Program-made: the position numbers and the translations under genes
The notes under the pieces: model-generated
Told to the model about the DNA's origin: nothing
Database searches by the model: none
The model's input: the letters and a program-made list of their open reading frames with translations, nothing else
Shown: in pieces, positions 27,258-33,587 of the stretch
Numbering within the stretch: the first letter of the stretch is position 1
Layout: each line of letters begins with the position of its first letter
NCBI GenBank assembly: GCA_020720105.1
Contig: DYPF01000002.1
Location: 4,473-38,281, forward strand
Length of the DNA: 33,809 nt
Source of the DNA: Chloroherpeton thalassium
GTDB lineage: Bacteria > Bacteroidota > Ignavibacteria > Kapaibacteriales > UBA2268
Direction: 5' to 3'

Positions 27258-27620
27258 CTACATTTCGTCCCAAGGCAAATTTTCTTTAATAGGTATTGCT
27301 CTGGGAGCGGCATCACCAAGAATAGCCGGATTTAATGTATTAATCAAATAAATCAATACTCCAGATCGCTTTAGTGGTGGAACTTCAACCCACGAAACCA
27401 TTACCCCGTGAGCAGCAAAAGCCTTAAATATAATTTCATTTTGAAGCTTCAATATTTCTGAATAAATACTTCCTTGTCCAACCCGTAGGACTTTTCTATT
27501 GGCTCCGCTACCATACCAAATTACATAAACACCATTAGTATTTCTAATAGAAGAGTGGTTTAAATCAACTTTAAATAAATCGCACCAAACTTCTCCTTTA
27601 CATCTGTACCATTCTAACAT
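27258..27620 (-). CDS. Small protein with degenerate GIY-YIG-nuclease-like fold
   Basis: 120 aa; NGVYVIWYGSGANRKVLRVGQGSI and LIYLINTLNPAILGDAAP fit the GIY-YIG beta-beta and C-terminal helix pattern. Confidence 0.55.
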   Translation of the reverse strand: MLEWYRCKGEVWCDLFKVDLNHSSIRNTNGVYVIWYGSGANRKVLRVGQGSIYSEILKLQNEIIFKAFAAHGVMVSWVEVPPLKRSGVLIYLINTLNPAILGDAAPRAIPIKENLPWDEM

Positions 27621-27663: not shown

Positions 27664-28527
27664 TTACTTCAAAGAAAGTGTTTTTTCTTTCTTTTTTAGC
27701 GATTTTTCTAATTGTGTAGTAACATAATCGAACGCTTCGTCAGGAGTATCTGCAAATTTGAATAATTCCATATCTTTTTCGCAAATTAAACCTTTTTGCA
27801 TTAATAAATCAAAATTGATTAATTCTTTCCAAAATTTACTTCCGTAAAGAACAATAGGCAAAGGTTTCGTAACTTTGAGAGTTTGCCTTAAAGTTAGTAT
27901 CTCCATCAATTCATCTAATGTACCAAAGCCGCCGGGCATTGTTATTATTGCCTTTGCTAAATAAACGAACCAAAATTTTCGCATAAAGAAATAATGAAAT
28001 TCAAAATTTAAATCAGGACTGATAAATTTATTAGGATTTTGTTCAAATGGCAAACTGATATTTAGTCCTATGCTGTCTTGGTCTGCTAAAAACGCACCCT
28101 TATTAGCAGCTTCCATCATTCCACCGCCACCTCCAGAAGTAACGTATATGCCGTTTACTGGTGATTGGTTTTTTATCCATTCTGCAAAACGTTTGGCGAG
28201 AATAACACCATCTTCATAATATTGTGTTAAATCAGCTCTACTCTTCAAAGATTCAATTTCGTCTTTCAGTTTTTTCTGGTCTTTTGGGATTGATTTCTTC
28301 AAATCTTCTTCTAACTTTGCCAATTTGTGATTGTATTGCTCTTGTGATAATGTTCTTGCGGAGCCATAAAAGACAATAGCACCTCGAACATTTTTCTTTC
28401 TTAGATATTGGTCAGGATATAAATATTCAGCAATTAAACGCATAATTCTGCCATCACCACTATGAATGAACTCAAAATTATCGTAAGCCTTCTGACTACT
28501 TAGTATTTTTTCTGGATTTTTTTTCAT
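27664..28527 (-). CDS. LOG-family protein (Rossmann-fold, TIGR00730-type)
   Basis: 287 aa; YVTSGGGGGMMEAANKGAF and ITMPGGFGTLDELMEILTLRQ. Confidence 0.92.
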   Translation of the reverse strand: MKKNPEKILSSQKAYDNFEFIHSGDGRIMRLIAEYLYPDQYLRKKNVRGAIVFYGSARTLSQEQYNHKLAKLEEDLKKSIPKDQKKLKDEIESLKSRADLTQYYEDGVILAKRFAEWIKNQSPVNGIYVTSGGGGGMMEAANKGAFLADQDSIGLNISLPFEQNPNKFISPDLNFEFHYFFMRKFWFVYLAKAIITMPGGFGTLDELMEILTLRQTLKVTKPLPIVLYGSKFWKELINFDLLMQKGLICEKDMELFKFADTPDEAFDYVTTQLEKSLKKKEKTLSLK

Positions 28528-28536
28528 TATTTTATG

Positions 28537-30306
28537 TTATTTTAATATTGGGTTTGAGAAAAATGGTGGTTTTGGTGTATCTTTTTCAATTGGATTTATT
28601 TCTAAATCTTCAAATAATAATGCTGGGGAGATAATACTTGTAGGAATATATGGAGAACCTTCACCCATAAAGCCACCTGAATTTACGGATAGATGATTAA
28701 ACACATAATTTTCTGTCCCAGCAAATATTATATCTTTGAAAGTAGGAGCACTAATTGAACTAATTTGAATATTACTTACAAATTCTTCTCTGCCATCTTG
28801 ATAAATTTTGTATGCTTCAATTATCGGGCTTGAGTTTTGGTCAACTAAATAACTTGTTATTCCGTAGGTCTTGCTCATAATGGATGTTGACATTATATTT
28901 TGATTAGCAATTTTTGTAATGATTATTCCAAAAGGCAAATCCCTTTGTTTGATTAATTCTATTAACTTTGTCTTAATTTCATTATTATTTAGTGTTTTTT
29001 CTTTTTCAACTTCAATGAATAAATTGCTATAAGTGATTGCACCTTCCCGTTTATGACCATTAGAAACGAGTAGTCTTTTAGTTGGTGTTCTGTCGTTAAG
29101 CAATGATTTTAAGTAACCTTTTTCTACTAAATTAATAGTCTCTGGTTTAATTCCTTGGTCATCTATTTTATAAAACCCCAAAAATGTTGATTTTTCATAT
29201 TTGTTAATTGTTGGATTATCCACAACTGAAATAAATTCAGGCAACACTCTTCCGCCTATTTTTTTCTGAAATGATGAATTGCGTTGTGAGACAATTCCCA
29301 TCATACTTTCGGTAAGTTGTTGCCTTTGAGCTATAAAATTTGGAGCCAAACTTCGTGAAATTAACTCTCCCGTTGCCTCGCCGACTATCAGTACTGGACC
29401 ATTATATGGTTCATCAAGTGATTTTGCAATAAGGGACTTTTCTGTTGTAGTTGCCATTTTATTAATTGCTTTGCTTAATGAATCGGCATTTGGCAAAAAT
29501 TCAGGATATGTTGTATAAGAATGATAATGATTAATTACTGGAGTTCCATCATCTTTTTGGGCAAACGCTATTGATTCTAATCCAGAAAAATAACTATCTT
29601 TCACATATTCCATTCCTTCGGAATTTACATAAAATGTCCTATTTTGTAAATATTCGAATGCAACTTGCGAAACAAAAATTTTTGAATAATTTTGGAAAAT
29701 CTTGCTTAATTCTTTGACTACATTTGTGTATTTTGCAAAATCAAAATCTTTTGTTTTTGCTGTGTCATAAGATTTTACAGGTGAAACTACACTAAAATCA
29801 GGAATAGTATCTTTACGAATAATGTTTTTAAGAGTTGCAATTTTCTTGGAATATACTTCTGATGATTGTTTATAAGCAGCATCAGTAGCAAGCCATATTT
29901 CTCTTCTGATATTATCGTAAGTTAATTCAACTGGCATTATCCTATTCTGGTAATTCTCCTCATCATCTGTGCTACCAAAGAAGGAAAAACCAATATCGAA
30001 AAAATTTGAATTATCAAATTTATAATCGCCAATTCTAATTCCAACATTGAGAGTAATTCTTAATGGGTTATCATTACTAAGTACTTGTCCCATATCACTT
30101 GTTGTTAAATATTGCTGGCTTATTGTCAATTTATATTCAATATAATATGGTTTTTCTAAATTTTCAATCTTTAATTCACTCATTGACCTATTCAATTCAT
30201 CTTTCATAGCTTTCAGAATAATATCTGAATTGTATTTTGCAAAAAGATTTGAACTCGAGAAAACTACAAATAATGCAAAGATTGATATTTTTATTAAATT
30301 TTTCAT
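28537..30306 (-). CDS. Exported TldD/PmbA-like protein lacking HExxxH (TldE-like partner)
   Basis: 589 aa with signal peptide; co-linear with downstream-coordinate paralog (YNGPVLIVGEATGELISRSLAPNF; GRVLPEFISVVDNP; GFYKIDDQG; LLNDRTPTKRLLVSNGHKREG) but no HExxxH. Confidence 0.85.
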   Translation of the reverse strand: MKNLIKISIFALFVVFSSSNLFAKYNSDIILKAMKDELNRSMSELKIENLEKPYYIEYKLTISQQYLTTSDMGQVLSNDNPLRITLNVGIRIGDYKFDNSNFFDIGFSFFGSTDDEENYQNRIMPVELTYDNIRREIWLATDAAYKQSSEVYSKKIATLKNIIRKDTIPDFSVVSPVKSYDTAKTKDFDFAKYTNVVKELSKIFQNYSKIFVSQVAFEYLQNRTFYVNSEGMEYVKDSYFSGLESIAFAQKDDGTPVINHYHSYTTYPEFLPNADSLSKAINKMATTTEKSLIAKSLDEPYNGPVLIVGEATGELISRSLAPNFIAQRQQLTESMMGIVSQRNSSFQKKIGGRVLPEFISVVDNPTINKYEKSTFLGFYKIDDQGIKPETINLVEKGYLKSLLNDRTPTKRLLVSNGHKREGAITYSNLFIEVEKEKTLNNNEIKTKLIELIKQRDLPFGIIITKIANQNIMSTSIMSKTYGITSYLVDQNSSPIIEAYKIYQDGREEFVSNIQISSISAPTFKDIIFAGTENYVFNHLSVNSGGFMGEGSPYIPTSIISPALLFEDLEINPIEKDTPKPPFFSNPILK

Positions 30307-30319
30307 TTCAATTCCTAAT

Positions 30320-31984
30320 TTATGGTGCTGGTAAAACTGGTGGTTTTGCTTGTGATTTTAACTTCTTCTGAACTTCGATTCTTGATACCAATATTGATGG
30401 TGAGCAAGCAGAAACTGGCACTCCACCCGATTCTGCGCCACAAATGCCATTGAATACGCCCATATCATTACCAACTCCAACAATGTTAGCAAATGTTGTT
30501 AATGGTGTTCCAATTAAATCCACACCACGAACTAATTCATCGGGTCTGCCATCTGCATACACTTTATAAACAACCAGAGGAGTAACATTAAAAGCGTTAG
30601 GAATATGGCGATTAGTGAAAGTAAAGCCACCCGAAACCTCAACAAAGTACAATCCGTATTCTTTGCCTTGCTCCTTTGCTATTTTGCGTAATTCTTCTTT
30701 TAAATTATCAAAGGTTTGTATCTTAGAACTTTCTACAATCAAATTTGATTGACGAGTAACAGGTGAATAGCCCGGTGCTTTTCGTCCATGACCATTTGAA
30801 TTATCGAAACCCTCAATTGGAGTGCGGGACATCAAAAAGTTCGAAAAAACTCCATCTTTTACCACATCAACTTTGCTTGCCTTTGTACCTTCATCATCGT
30901 ATTGATAGTATCCAGCTAATTGTGTATTATTCAATTCTCGTTTTGTTGGATCAAAAATTATGCTCATATACTCTGGCAGAATTTTTGTCCCAACCGATTT
31001 TTTGAATGTTTGGCTTGAACTTGGATCTTTCTCGCGATGTCCTTCCACTCTATGACCAAAAATCTCATGGAAAAATACACCCGAAGCTCTGCCAGATAGC
31101 AAAGCAGGACCAGTGAACACATCTGCATAAGGTGCAGTTCGCAATTTGTCAAGTAAGTCAATCATTTCATCAATACTTTTTTCAATTGTTTGAGTATTCG
31201 GCAAAGAATCAGGGTTGAAAGCAAAGAAACTATGATAAAGTGGAAGTGTCATTCCGTCATCGGCTTTTGTATCGGCGGTAACAAAAATATAAAAATAACT
31301 TTCTGATGTATAAAGTTTTGTACCTTCGCTTGAAACAATTGTTTTAACTTTGGAATTTCCAAATAATGAAACAGATGAATTCAATATCCATTTGTGTGAA
31401 TTGAATTTTGACGATAATTTGTTTAGGATTGGCTCCCATTTATCCAAATCAACTGTATATAATTGCTTGGGATAGATAGCAAATACTGGATTTGGTTGGG
31501 TGAAATCAGCAGAAGTGTCATCTTCCTGTACTTTAACTTTAGTATTAGTTAAAGCTTTCTCGTAGCGTTCAATTGCATTTTTATATGCTTTATCTGTTGC
31601 AAACCACATTGTTTTGGCAATCAAACTTTCATCATCATTATAAGGTAACTCAATTCTACCAAAACTTGATGAAAAATTGAGTGGATTGCCACGAATTAAG
31701 TGAGTGTTGTCAAATTTATAATCGCCAACTCTAATTTGAATGTCAAGCATTCTATTGCTGTCTATGTTTTTACTTTCTGTAGCACCAAAGCTACTTGCAA
31801 TGCGATAACTCTTAGTTTCAGTTATATAATGTTCTAAGAAATAGGGGGGATTTTGATTGCTTTTTAATTCTTGCATTGTCCGAGCAATTTCTCTTTCAGA
31901 AATTTGGACAATTTTTGGAATATCCTTGGTCTGTGCAAATACAAATCCATAAGCTACCAAAAAGATAAATATTTTATTAATCAT
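30320..31984 (-). CDS. Exported TldD-like metalloprotease with intact HExxxH
   Basis: 554 aa with signal peptide; FTGPALLSGRASGVFFHEIFGHRVEGHREKD, GYYQYDDEGTKA, FLMSRTPIEGFDNSNGHGR, CGAESGG. Confidence 0.93.
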   Translation of the reverse strand: MINKIFIFLVAYGFVFAQTKDIPKIVQISEREIARTMQELKSNQNPPYFLEHYITETKSYRIASSFGATESKNIDSNRMLDIQIRVGDYKFDNTHLIRGNPLNFSSSFGRIELPYNDDESLIAKTMWFATDKAYKNAIERYEKALTNTKVKVQEDDTSADFTQPNPVFAIYPKQLYTVDLDKWEPILNKLSSKFNSHKWILNSSVSLFGNSKVKTIVSSEGTKLYTSESYFYIFVTADTKADDGMTLPLYHSFFAFNPDSLPNTQTIEKSIDEMIDLLDKLRTAPYADVFTGPALLSGRASGVFFHEIFGHRVEGHREKDPSSSQTFKKSVGTKILPEYMSIIFDPTKRELNNTQLAGYYQYDDEGTKASKVDVVKDGVFSNFLMSRTPIEGFDNSNGHGRKAPGYSPVTRQSNLIVESSKIQTFDNLKEELRKIAKEQGKEYGLYFVEVSGGFTFTNRHIPNAFNVTPLVVYKVYADGRPDELVRGVDLIGTPLTTFANIVGVGNDMGVFNGICGAESGGVPVSACSPSILVSRIEVQKKLKSQAKPPVLPAP

Positions 31985-32008: not shown

Positions 32009-32413
32009 TTAATATTTTGGTTGGCAAAGTTCGGTTAATACTCCATTTGTTGATTTTGGATGGAGAAAACCTATTAACATTTCGTGTGCTCCTTGCACTC
32101 CACTCTCGTTAATCAATTGGAATTCTTCATTTTTTAATCGTAAAAGTTCATTATTTACATCATCTGTTTGGAAAGCGATATGATGAATTCCTTCGCCTTT
32201 TTTTTCGATGAATTTGGCAATTGGAGAGGTTTCGTCTGTTGCTTGTGTTAATTCTAATCTTACTTCACCTACTTTGAATGAAGCAACTTTAACTTTTTGA
32301 TCTGCAACTGTTTCAGTGTGAATATCTTCTACTTGGAATAATTTTTTAAATGTAGCCAAAGAAATATCTAAATCTTTAACTGCTATACCGATATGATTGA
32401 TTGATTTAATCAT
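32009..32413 (-). CDS. mce: Methylmalonyl-CoA epimerase
   Basis: 134 aa; INHIGIAVKDLDISLATFKKLF, VRLELTQATDETSPIAKFIEKKGEGIHHIAFQTDDV, FLHPKSTNGVLTELCQ. Confidence 0.94.
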   Translation of the reverse strand: MIKSINHIGIAVKDLDISLATFKKLFQVEDIHTETVADQKVKVASFKVGEVRLELTQATDETSPIAKFIEKKGEGIHHIAFQTDDVNNELLRLKNEEFQLINESGVQGAHEMLIGFLHPKSTNGVLTELCQPKY

Positions 32414-32435
32414 TTTAATTCTAAATTTTATTAAA

Positions 32436-33185
32436 CTATAATGAAAGATTATTTTGTAAATTTTCTAAATCTGTTAATTGGTTTACACCTTGGATTTCAT
32501 TAAAATCTGCAATGGAAAAAGCCTTAACAATGTGGTTTTGCTTGTATAAAATATCAATTACATCTGTTAAATAATACTCGTTTTGTGAATTATTATTGGA
32601 AATTTTTTTCAATGAATCAAAGAGTAATTTTGAATTAATCAAATAAATGCCCGAATTTATTTCTTTAATGGATTTCTCTTGTTCGTTAGCATCTTTTTCT
32701 TCGGTAATTCTGATAAAATTACCATTATTATTACGAATAATTCTACCATACCCATAAGGATTATCCGCAATACTTGATAAAACTGATGCCGATGAATTAT
32801 TTTCAAAGTGCATATTTATAAAATCTTGAGTAGTTGATTTGCTAAGCAATGGTACATCGCCCGATAAAATCAGAATATTTCCATCAAATTCAGTCAAATT
32901 GGATTCCGTTTGTGCAACAGCATGTCCCGTTCCTAATTGTTCATCTTGCGCTGCATATTCAAATTTTGGATTTTTGTGAGAAGCAATGAAATCAATTACT
33001 TGCTCTTTGTGATGTCCTACAATTACTACAACTTTTTCTGGATTCAGATTTGTAGATAATTCTAATACATAATCCAGCAATGGTCGATTTTTGAGTTCTA
33101 CTAATACTTTTGGGAGATTCGGATTATTCATCCTCTTTCCTTTGCCTGCGGCAAGGATAACTATTGCTAACTTGTTATTTGACAT
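32436..33185 (-). CDS. Stand-alone sugar nucleotidyltransferase, GlmU N-terminal-domain-like
   Basis: 249 aa; AIVILAAGKGKRMNNPNLPKVLVEL, DEQLGTGHAV, ILSGDVPLLS, EINSGIYLI, NEYYLTDVIDIL; no left-handed beta-helix domain. Confidence 0.9.
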   Translation of the reverse strand: MSNNKLAIVILAAGKGKRMNNPNLPKVLVELKNRPLLDYVLELSTNLNPEKVVVIVGHHKEQVIDFIASHKNPKFEYAAQDEQLGTGHAVAQTESNLTEFDGNILILSGDVPLLSKSTTQDFINMHFENNSSASVLSSIADNPYGYGRIIRNNNGNFIRITEEKDANEQEKSIKEINSGIYLINSKLLFDSLKKISNNNSQNEYYLTDVIDILYKQNHIVKAFSIADFNEIQGVNQLTDLENLQNNLSL

Positions 33186-33194
33186 AGAACTATT

Positions 33195-33587
33195 TTATTT
33201 TTGAGTAATTAAGGATTTAGGTGAAGTCTTATGAGAAATTGATTTAACATTATTCTGCTTATCCACAAGAACAATTTTGGGTTGAAAATCTTGTATTTCA
33301 TTGTCTTCAAAAAAACCATAAGTGATAATTATTACTTCATCGCCAACAGCAACTTTTCTTGCAGCAGCACCATTTAAGCAAATATCCCGCTTGCCGTAGT
33401 CGCCTTCAATTACATAAGTATCGAAACGCTCGCCGTTATTAATGTTAAGCACCGATACCTTTTCATTTTCCAAAATATCGGCTATTTCCATCAACTCTTT
33501 GTCGATTGTAATGCTTCCTTCATAGTAAAGATTTGCTTCGGTTACTGTTGCTCTATGTATTTTTGATTTAAATAGTATTCTTTGCAT
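33195..33587 (-). CDS. panD: Aspartate 1-decarboxylase
   Basis: 130 aa; [23 protein letters not shown] with Gly-Ser self-cleavage site, [34 protein letters not shown]. Confidence 0.95.

What the first reader, a model, noticed from the sequence alone, without database searches (positions are those of the whole stretch)
28537..31984. Tandem exported TldD/TldE-like pair: one partner with HExxxH, one without
Seen: two adjacent minus-strand genes 13 bp apart encode co-linear paralogs. The first-transcribed (30320..31984) has HEIFGHRVEGHR. The second (28537..30306) aligns through GPxLxxGxAxG but reads ELISRSLAPNF where the metal site should be. Both start with clear signal peptides (MINKIFIFLVAYGFVFAQ; MKNLIKISIFALFVVFSSSNLFAK) and both end in proline-rich tails (KPPVLPAP; KPPFFSNPILK). 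Established: E. coli TldD/TldE (PmbA) is a cytoplasmic heterodimeric protease with one metal-binding subunit, acting on unfolded peptides such as microcin precursors and CcdA. Inference: this is a heterodimer moved to the periplasm or cell surface, with an unknown peptide substrate.
Basis: partly seen in the sequence, partly recalled or inferred. Interest (0 to 1): 0.6.

Follow-up and report, generated by a model that had tools for sequence, protein, structure and literature searches.

The report
Exported TldD-type protease with dead partner
Two neighbouring genes encode the halves of an exported protein-trimming enzyme, one with the metal active site and one without; this exported pair evolved separately from the well-known TldD/TldE enzyme inside cells and appears to have invented the 'one live half, one dead half' design a second time.

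Summary
30320-31984(-) encodes a TldD-like protein (sTldD) with HExxxH and the third metal ligand, a C-terminal Cys. 28537-30306(-), 13 bp on, encodes a co-linear partner (sTldE) lacking all ligands. Both have signal peptides. The pair is not a chance local duplicate. At least 121 of 123 genomes of the same order have it, and it occurs in Ignavibacteriota, Bacteroidota, Acidobacteriota, Planctomycetota and a few Myxococcota. HE..H+Cys is intact in 65/65 exported catalytic sequences and in none of about 45 partners. At least three independent lineages fuse the genes into one ~1,100-aa protein with one signal peptide, direct support for an exported heterodimer; AlphaFold models agree. sTldD and sTldE are each other's closest relatives, apart from cytoplasmic TldD/TldE (support 100/100; grouping TldD with sTldD rejected, p=0.0009 and 3e-7), so the metal-free partner arose twice. 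About 80% of the order has no detectable cytoplasmic pair. Most Myxococcota carriers have a single exported copy with the site intact. Most likely mechanism: a periplasmic 'pencil-sharpener' metallopeptidase trimming unfolded peptides. Heterodimer and export are well supported; substrate and role are inferred.

The parts
30320..31984 (-). sTldD: exported catalytic TldD-like subunit, 554 aa
   Evidence: PF19289 E=1.7e-28; PDB 5nj5_A TldD E=7.6e-13
31934..31984 (-). signal peptide of sTldD, MINKIFIFLVAYGFVFA|Q
   Evidence: rule-based check; conserved in family
31052..31069 (-). metal site HEIFGH (residues 306-311 = E. coli H262, E263, H267)
30440..30442 (-). third metal ligand C515 (= E. coli C454), the only invariant Cys of the exported catalytic group
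30323..30358 (-). conserved C-terminal tail KSQAKPPVLPAP
   Evidence: motif in 40/44 sTldD, 0/17 TldD
28537..30306 (-). sTldE: exported metal-free TldD-type partner, 589 aa
   Evidence: PF19289 E=4.1e-16; all 16 significant PDB fold matches are TldD/TldE entries
30238..30306 (-). signal peptide of sTldE, MKNLIKISIFALFVVFSSSNLFA|K
   Evidence: rule-based check; conserved in family
29341..29358 (-). vestigial metal-site position SRSLAP (residues 317-322) where sTldD has HEIFGH
28540..28578 (-). C-terminal tail TPKPPFFSNPILK of sTldE
   Evidence: motif in 33/37 sTldE, 0/16 TldE

Best explanation
The two genes encode an exported (most likely soluble periplasmic) heterodimeric metallopeptidase of the TldD fold. 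sTldD carries the metal site (H306, E307, H311, C515). sTldE is a structural half-shell that has lost every ligand and closes the hollow chamber around sTldD's active site. By analogy with E. coli TldD/E, unfolded peptides enter through a narrow channel and are shortened from the N-terminus, with little sequence specificity, as a housekeeping activity of the cell envelope. The pair descends from an exported TldD-like ancestor that duplicated and lost one metal site independently of the duplication that made cytoplasmic TldD/TldE. Shown: fold, ligand conservation, co-occurrence, fusions, phylogeny. Strongly supported: export and heterodimer. Inferred: peptidase activity, periplasmic location, substrate class.
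For: Fold: sTldE model (pLDDT 80, pTM 0.81) matches only TldD/TldE entries in the PDB, over essentially full length (best 2.6e-25). Metal site: HE..H+C in 44/44 sTldD, 5/5 fused D halves, 16/16 Myxococcota single copies and 17/17 TldD; absent from all 37 sTldE and 5 fused E halves. The columns invariant in catalytic members but free in sTldE cluster at the metal site, while structural Gly, Asp, Arg and Pro stay invariant. Heterodimer: D and E 1:1 in 19 of the 21 named genomes searched (one Myxococcales genome has D alone, one Bacteroidaceae match is a D-E fusion reported once); natural D-E fusions without an internal signal peptide in one genus of the same order (L047, L154, L155), in an acidobacterial MAG (L082) and in Prevotellaceae/Bacteroidaceae (L093-L095, L115-L122); fused model pTM 0.74 over 1,119 residues. 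Export. Independent origin: plus residues shared by sTldD and sTldE but not TldD (W127, R85, P293, terminal P554) and the C-terminal tail.
Against: No activity, localisation or complex was measured. The signal-peptide rule is my own, not SignalP. Model coordinates and PAE were not available, so the interface was not inspected. TldD-family proteins also include N-deacetylases, so peptide hydrolysis is not guaranteed. Most Myxococcota carriers have an intact exported single copy, so a partner is not universally needed.
Confidence: 0.68

Rival explanations
1. The complex is an exported amidase or N-deacetylase acting on a small envelope molecule rather than a peptidase.
For: The TldD/TldE family is described as containing N-deacetylases as well as peptidases (title of Vobruba et al. 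2022, cited in PMC10885120; paper not held). In Myxococcota a UDP-sugar dehydrogenase gene neighbours the single-copy gene in at least three loci examined.
Against: No consistent small-molecule or sugar gene lies beside the gene outside Myxococcota. The metal site is the same as in the E. coli peptidase.
Confidence: 0.15
2. sTldD works alone (homodimer), as in Myxococcota, and sTldE has a separate, regulatory or substrate-delivery role.
For: Most Myxococcota carriers have one exported copy, all 16 examined with an intact site. A Sulfolobus TldD homodimer is reported active (cited in PMC5810440).
Against: Repeated D-E fusions and retention of both genes even when unlinked. sTldE keeps the full fold and structural residues.
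Confidence: 0.1
3. The pair matures one dedicated exported peptide (RiPP-like product).
For: E. coli TldD/E removes RiPP leader peptides, usually from outside the gene cluster (PMC10885120).
Against: Nearly universal in the order, with a conserved housekeeping neighbourhood (panD, nucleotidyltransferase, glyoxalase/epimerase-type gene) and no precursor or modification genes beside it.
Confidence: 0.05
4. Ordinary cytoplasmic TldD/TldE with a hydrophobic N-terminus that is not a signal peptide.
For: Export rests on sequence rules only.
Against: Signal-like N-termini in 74/93 family ORFs against 0/17 cytoplasmic TldD; fusions keep only the first one. The same genome separately encodes a cytoplasmic pair.
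Confidence: 0.02

Closest known systems
E. coli TldD/TldE (PmbA), MEROPS M103; PDB 5NJ5 and others (Ghilarov 2017, PMC5810440)
   Same: Fold; HExxxH plus remote Cys in one subunit only; two homologous subunits, one catalytically dead.
   Different: Cytoplasmic, 450-481 aa, no signal peptide, no C-terminal KPP tail; its TldE is closer to TldD than to sTldE, so its dead partner has a separate origin; PF01523 is recognisable only in the cytoplasmic proteins.
TldE/PmbA structures (1VPB, 1VL4, 3QTD, 3TV9, 6J6A)
   Same: Overall fold of sTldE.
   Different: sTldE is a separate metal-free lineage, 11-14% identical in structural alignments, and exported.
Own-genome cytoplasmic TldD/TldE pair (G000:C375, L071)
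   Same: Adjacent live/dead pair in the same cell.
   Different: No signal peptide, recognisable PF01523 domain; PF01523 is present in only 27 of 123 genomes of the order, whereas the exported pair is in at least 121.

Membership tests
TldD/PmbA superfamily (M103 fold) | PmbA_TldD C-terminal domain PF19289 | tested here: met
   1.7e-28 and 4.1e-16, above cut-off in both
TldD/PmbA superfamily (M103 fold) | Overall TldD/TldE fold | tested here: met
   sTldE model and fused model match only TldD/TldE PDB entries significantly
TldD/PmbA superfamily (M103 fold) | N-terminal domain PF01523 recognisable by sequence | tested here: not met
   No match in either protein, though the fold comparison spans the N-terminal region
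TldD-type metallopeptidase, catalytic subunit | HExxxH plus C-terminal Cys ligand | tested here: met
   H306, E307, H311, C515
TldD-type metallopeptidase, catalytic subunit | Peptidase activity on unfolded peptides | not testable with these tools
   needs purified proteins
Cytoplasmic TldD/TldE heterodimer (NCBIfam TldD, PmbA equivalogs) | Scores above the equivalog cut-off | tested here: not met
   88.6 and 49.3 bits against a cut-off of 635; 39.0 against 513; 18.3 against 438
Cytoplasmic TldD/TldE heterodimer (NCBIfam TldD, PmbA equivalogs) | sTldE orthologous to TldE, sTldD to TldD | tested here: not met
   sTldD+sTldE clade 100/100; TldD+sTldD clade rejected, p=0.0009 and 2.7e-7
Cytoplasmic TldD/TldE heterodimer (NCBIfam TldD, PmbA equivalogs) | No signal peptide | tested here: not met
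   Signal peptides on both
TldD/E-like heterodimer (works like) | Obligate association of live and dead subunit | tested here: inconclusive
   Fusions and 1:1 occurrence support it; no interface or co-purification data

The most novel reading that the evidence does not exclude
The live/dead heterodimer of the TldD fold evolved at least twice: once in the cytoplasm (TldD/TldE) and once outside it (sTldD/sTldE), from an exported single-subunit ancestor resembling the Myxococcota proteins. In most of this order the exported form is the only TldD/E system.
Probability: 0.7. Interest if true: 0.65.

Novelty: new variant of a known kind. Interest (0 to 1): 0.55.

Why it matters
TldE is assumed to be a TldD copy that lost its catalytic centre once (PMC5810440). 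A second, independent instance outside the cytoplasm, with single-copy exported relatives, allows a test of why closing a chamber with a dead homologue is favoured. It also points to an uncharacterised exported peptidase that is nearly universal in one bacterial order and present in some Prevotella relatives as a single chain, which may be easier to purify and crystallise.

Tried and rejected
Mixing D and E singles with fusions in one MAFFT alignment put E rows on the D half, so the fused model used fusions, one in-frame tandem with its stop read as Q (L081) and E singles. Looked for a partner or substrate gene in the neighbourhood: none beyond lineage-specific synteny. Considered alternative metal ligands in sTldE: the only commonly conserved His or Cys is H418, which sTldD shares, so no alternative site was found. 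Considered whether Myxococcota single copies are the pre-duplication state: the tree joins them to sTldD (98/93), but the alternative is not rejected (p=0.34), so undecided. A third clade test (sTldE+TldE) did not finish. The plasmid search found no relative. Literature searches found no description of the exported pair; the 2022 family review (Vobruba et al.) is not held, so earlier description cannot be excluded. A Leptospira exoproteome paper lists a TldD of 49.9 kDa (PMC5881292), a size typical of the cytoplasmic form, alongside other cytoplasmic proteins; not counted as evidence.

Full report
OBSERVATION. They are co-linear paralogs, 28% identical end to end (E=3e-64). The first-transcribed protein (sTldD) has HEIFGH at residues 306-311 and also the third ligand of E. 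coli TldD, a C-terminal Cys (C515; alignment). The second (sTldE) has S, R and P at the HE..H positions and M at the Cys position. Pfam PF19289 is significant in both, PF19290 is sub-threshold and PF01523 is absent. NCBIfam TldD and PmbA models match far below cut-off, so no curated family in these libraries names this pair.

EXPORT. A simple rule (positive n-region, uncharged hydrophobic stretch, small residues at -3/-1) finds signal peptides at the expected start in both window proteins. It finds them in 35/48 sTldD ORFs, 34/40 sTldE ORFs and 5/5 fusions, against 0/17 cytoplasmic TldD and 67/313 neighbouring ORFs. For a second set of exported relatives, with start codons searched more loosely, it found 23 of 25. 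Pfam reported no T9SS sorting domain in either protein and the cleavage sites lack a following Cys, so soluble periplasmic proteins are the simplest reading (inference).

METAL SITE. On one alignment the four positions E. coli H262, E263, H267 and C454 read HEHC in 44/44 sTldD, 5/5 fused D halves and 17/17 cytoplasmic TldD. They read HEHC in none of 37 sTldE, 5 fused E halves or 16 cytoplasmic TldE. Sixteen of 16 Myxococcota single copies also read HEHC. Among columns at least 97% conserved in the exported catalytic proteins, those around the metal (including E314 and R411, also invariant in TldD) are free in sTldE, whereas structural Gly, Asp, Arg and Pro stay fixed. C515 is the only Cys conserved in the exported catalytic group, and 7 of 34 proteins have no other Cys; this fits a metal ligand better than an intrachain disulfide.

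DISTRIBUTION. In the order of the window's genome, 122 of 123 genomes match sTldD at E<=1e-12. One of those (G346, 1.6e-17) is probably only the cytoplasmic protein, leaving 121 with a strong exported match (some of these, in fragmented assemblies, show only one of the two genes). The cytoplasmic family marker PF01523 is found in only 27 of 123, and in 19 of 101 near-complete genomes, including the window's own genome, which has both pairs. So in most of the order no cytoplasmic TldD/E was detected. Named carriers include Ignavibacteria and Kapaibacterium, Bacteroidales, Cyclobacteriaceae, Prevotella, Acidobacteria, a planctomycete and Myxococcales. In a sample of 297 genomes of the phylum, 30 carry it.

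HETERODIMER. In the phylum sample the two genes are adjacent (or fused) in 19 genomes and at separate places in 9, yet both are kept; where separated, sTldD often stays beside panD, a nucleotidyltransferase and a glyoxalase-type gene (L035, L036, L040, L045). In 21 named genomes D and E are 1:1 except in one Myxococcales genome with D alone; two acidobacterial genomes have two pairs each, and one Bacteroidaceae match is a D-E fusion reported once. D and E are one continuous frame, D first, in three separate lineages: one genus of the order (L047, L154, L155), an acidobacterial MAG (L082), and Prevotellaceae/Bacteroidaceae (L093-L095, L115-L122; in the Prevotella family 9 of 10 carriers have a full-length fusion and the tenth match is partial). 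In the five fusions read out, the first half carries the only signal peptide and the second half begins without one. AlphaFold2 of the L082 fusion gave pLDDT 78.6 and pTM 0.74 over 1,119 residues, with 127 residues below 50. Two independently floating halves would be expected nearer 0.5 (my estimate), so their relative placement is probably confident; coordinates and PAE were not available. sTldE alone gave pLDDT 80.1, pTM 0.81, and its significant PDB matches are 16 TldD/TldE chains and nothing else; the fused model gives the same list.

ORIGIN. A tree of 75 proteins with the metal columns removed gives four groups, with sTldD+sTldE separated from TldD+TldE at 100/100. Restricted to the C-terminal domain, holding TldD and sTldD together is rejected (AU p=0.0009). 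With the full alignment and Myxococcota included, holding all catalytic proteins together is rejected (p=2.7e-7). Attraction between the fast-evolving metal-free groups would favour the opposite result. sTldD and sTldE also share residues that TldD lacks (W127, R85, P293, the tail P554) and a C-terminal [KR]xPP tail (40/44 and 33/37, against 0/33 cytoplasmic). The simplest reading is that a metal-free partner arose twice. Ghilarov et al. assume one TldD copy lost its centre to give TldE (PMC5810440). In Myxococcota 56 of 97 sampled genomes have an exported member, mostly one copy, and all 16 single copies aligned keep the metal site. Whether these preceded the duplication or lost sTldE is undecided (p=0.34).

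MECHANISM. E. coli TldD/E is a hollow heterodimer in which unfolded peptides thread to a metal site on TldD and are shortened from the N-terminus (PMC5810440). The same fold, ligands and live/dead pairing make the same mechanism the best guess for this exported enzyme. Near-universal presence and housekeeping neighbours argue for general envelope peptide turnover rather than a dedicated product. Neighbouring genes give no substrate clue. The family is said to include N-deacetylases, so a small-molecule amidase remains the main rival. Activity, location and complex formation are untested.

NOVELTY. Membership of the TldD fold family is met; membership of the TldD/TldE ortholog families is not. 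I found no paper describing an exported pair in the library held, but the 2022 family review is not held. I rate it a new variant of a known kind.

Noticed in passing
window 32009-33587 (-): Upstream neighbours (glyoxalase/epimerase-type gene, nucleotidyltransferase, panD) stay with sTldD in many genomes of the order, even where sTldE has moved elsewhere.
   Followed up: partly
window 27664-28527 (-): Gene directly downstream is a TIGR00730/LOG-type (Lysine_decarbox) Rossmann protein, 9 bp after sTldE; its link to the pair was not tested.
   Followed up: no
window 27258-27620 (-): 120-aa ORF with no Pfam or NCBIfam match.
   Followed up: no
L085 5911-7608 (Paludibacter MAG): sTldD reading frame is interrupted by one in-frame TAG; could be decay, sequencing error or recoding.
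   Followed up: no
Genomes G408 and G410 (Acidobacteria, L088, L090): Two separate exported D/E pairs in each genome.
   Followed up: partly
L136 and L137 (Myxococcota genomes G632, G600): Genomes holding both the single-copy exported TldD and an additional D/E pair, with very divergent E subunits; possible horizontal acquisition.
   Followed up: partly
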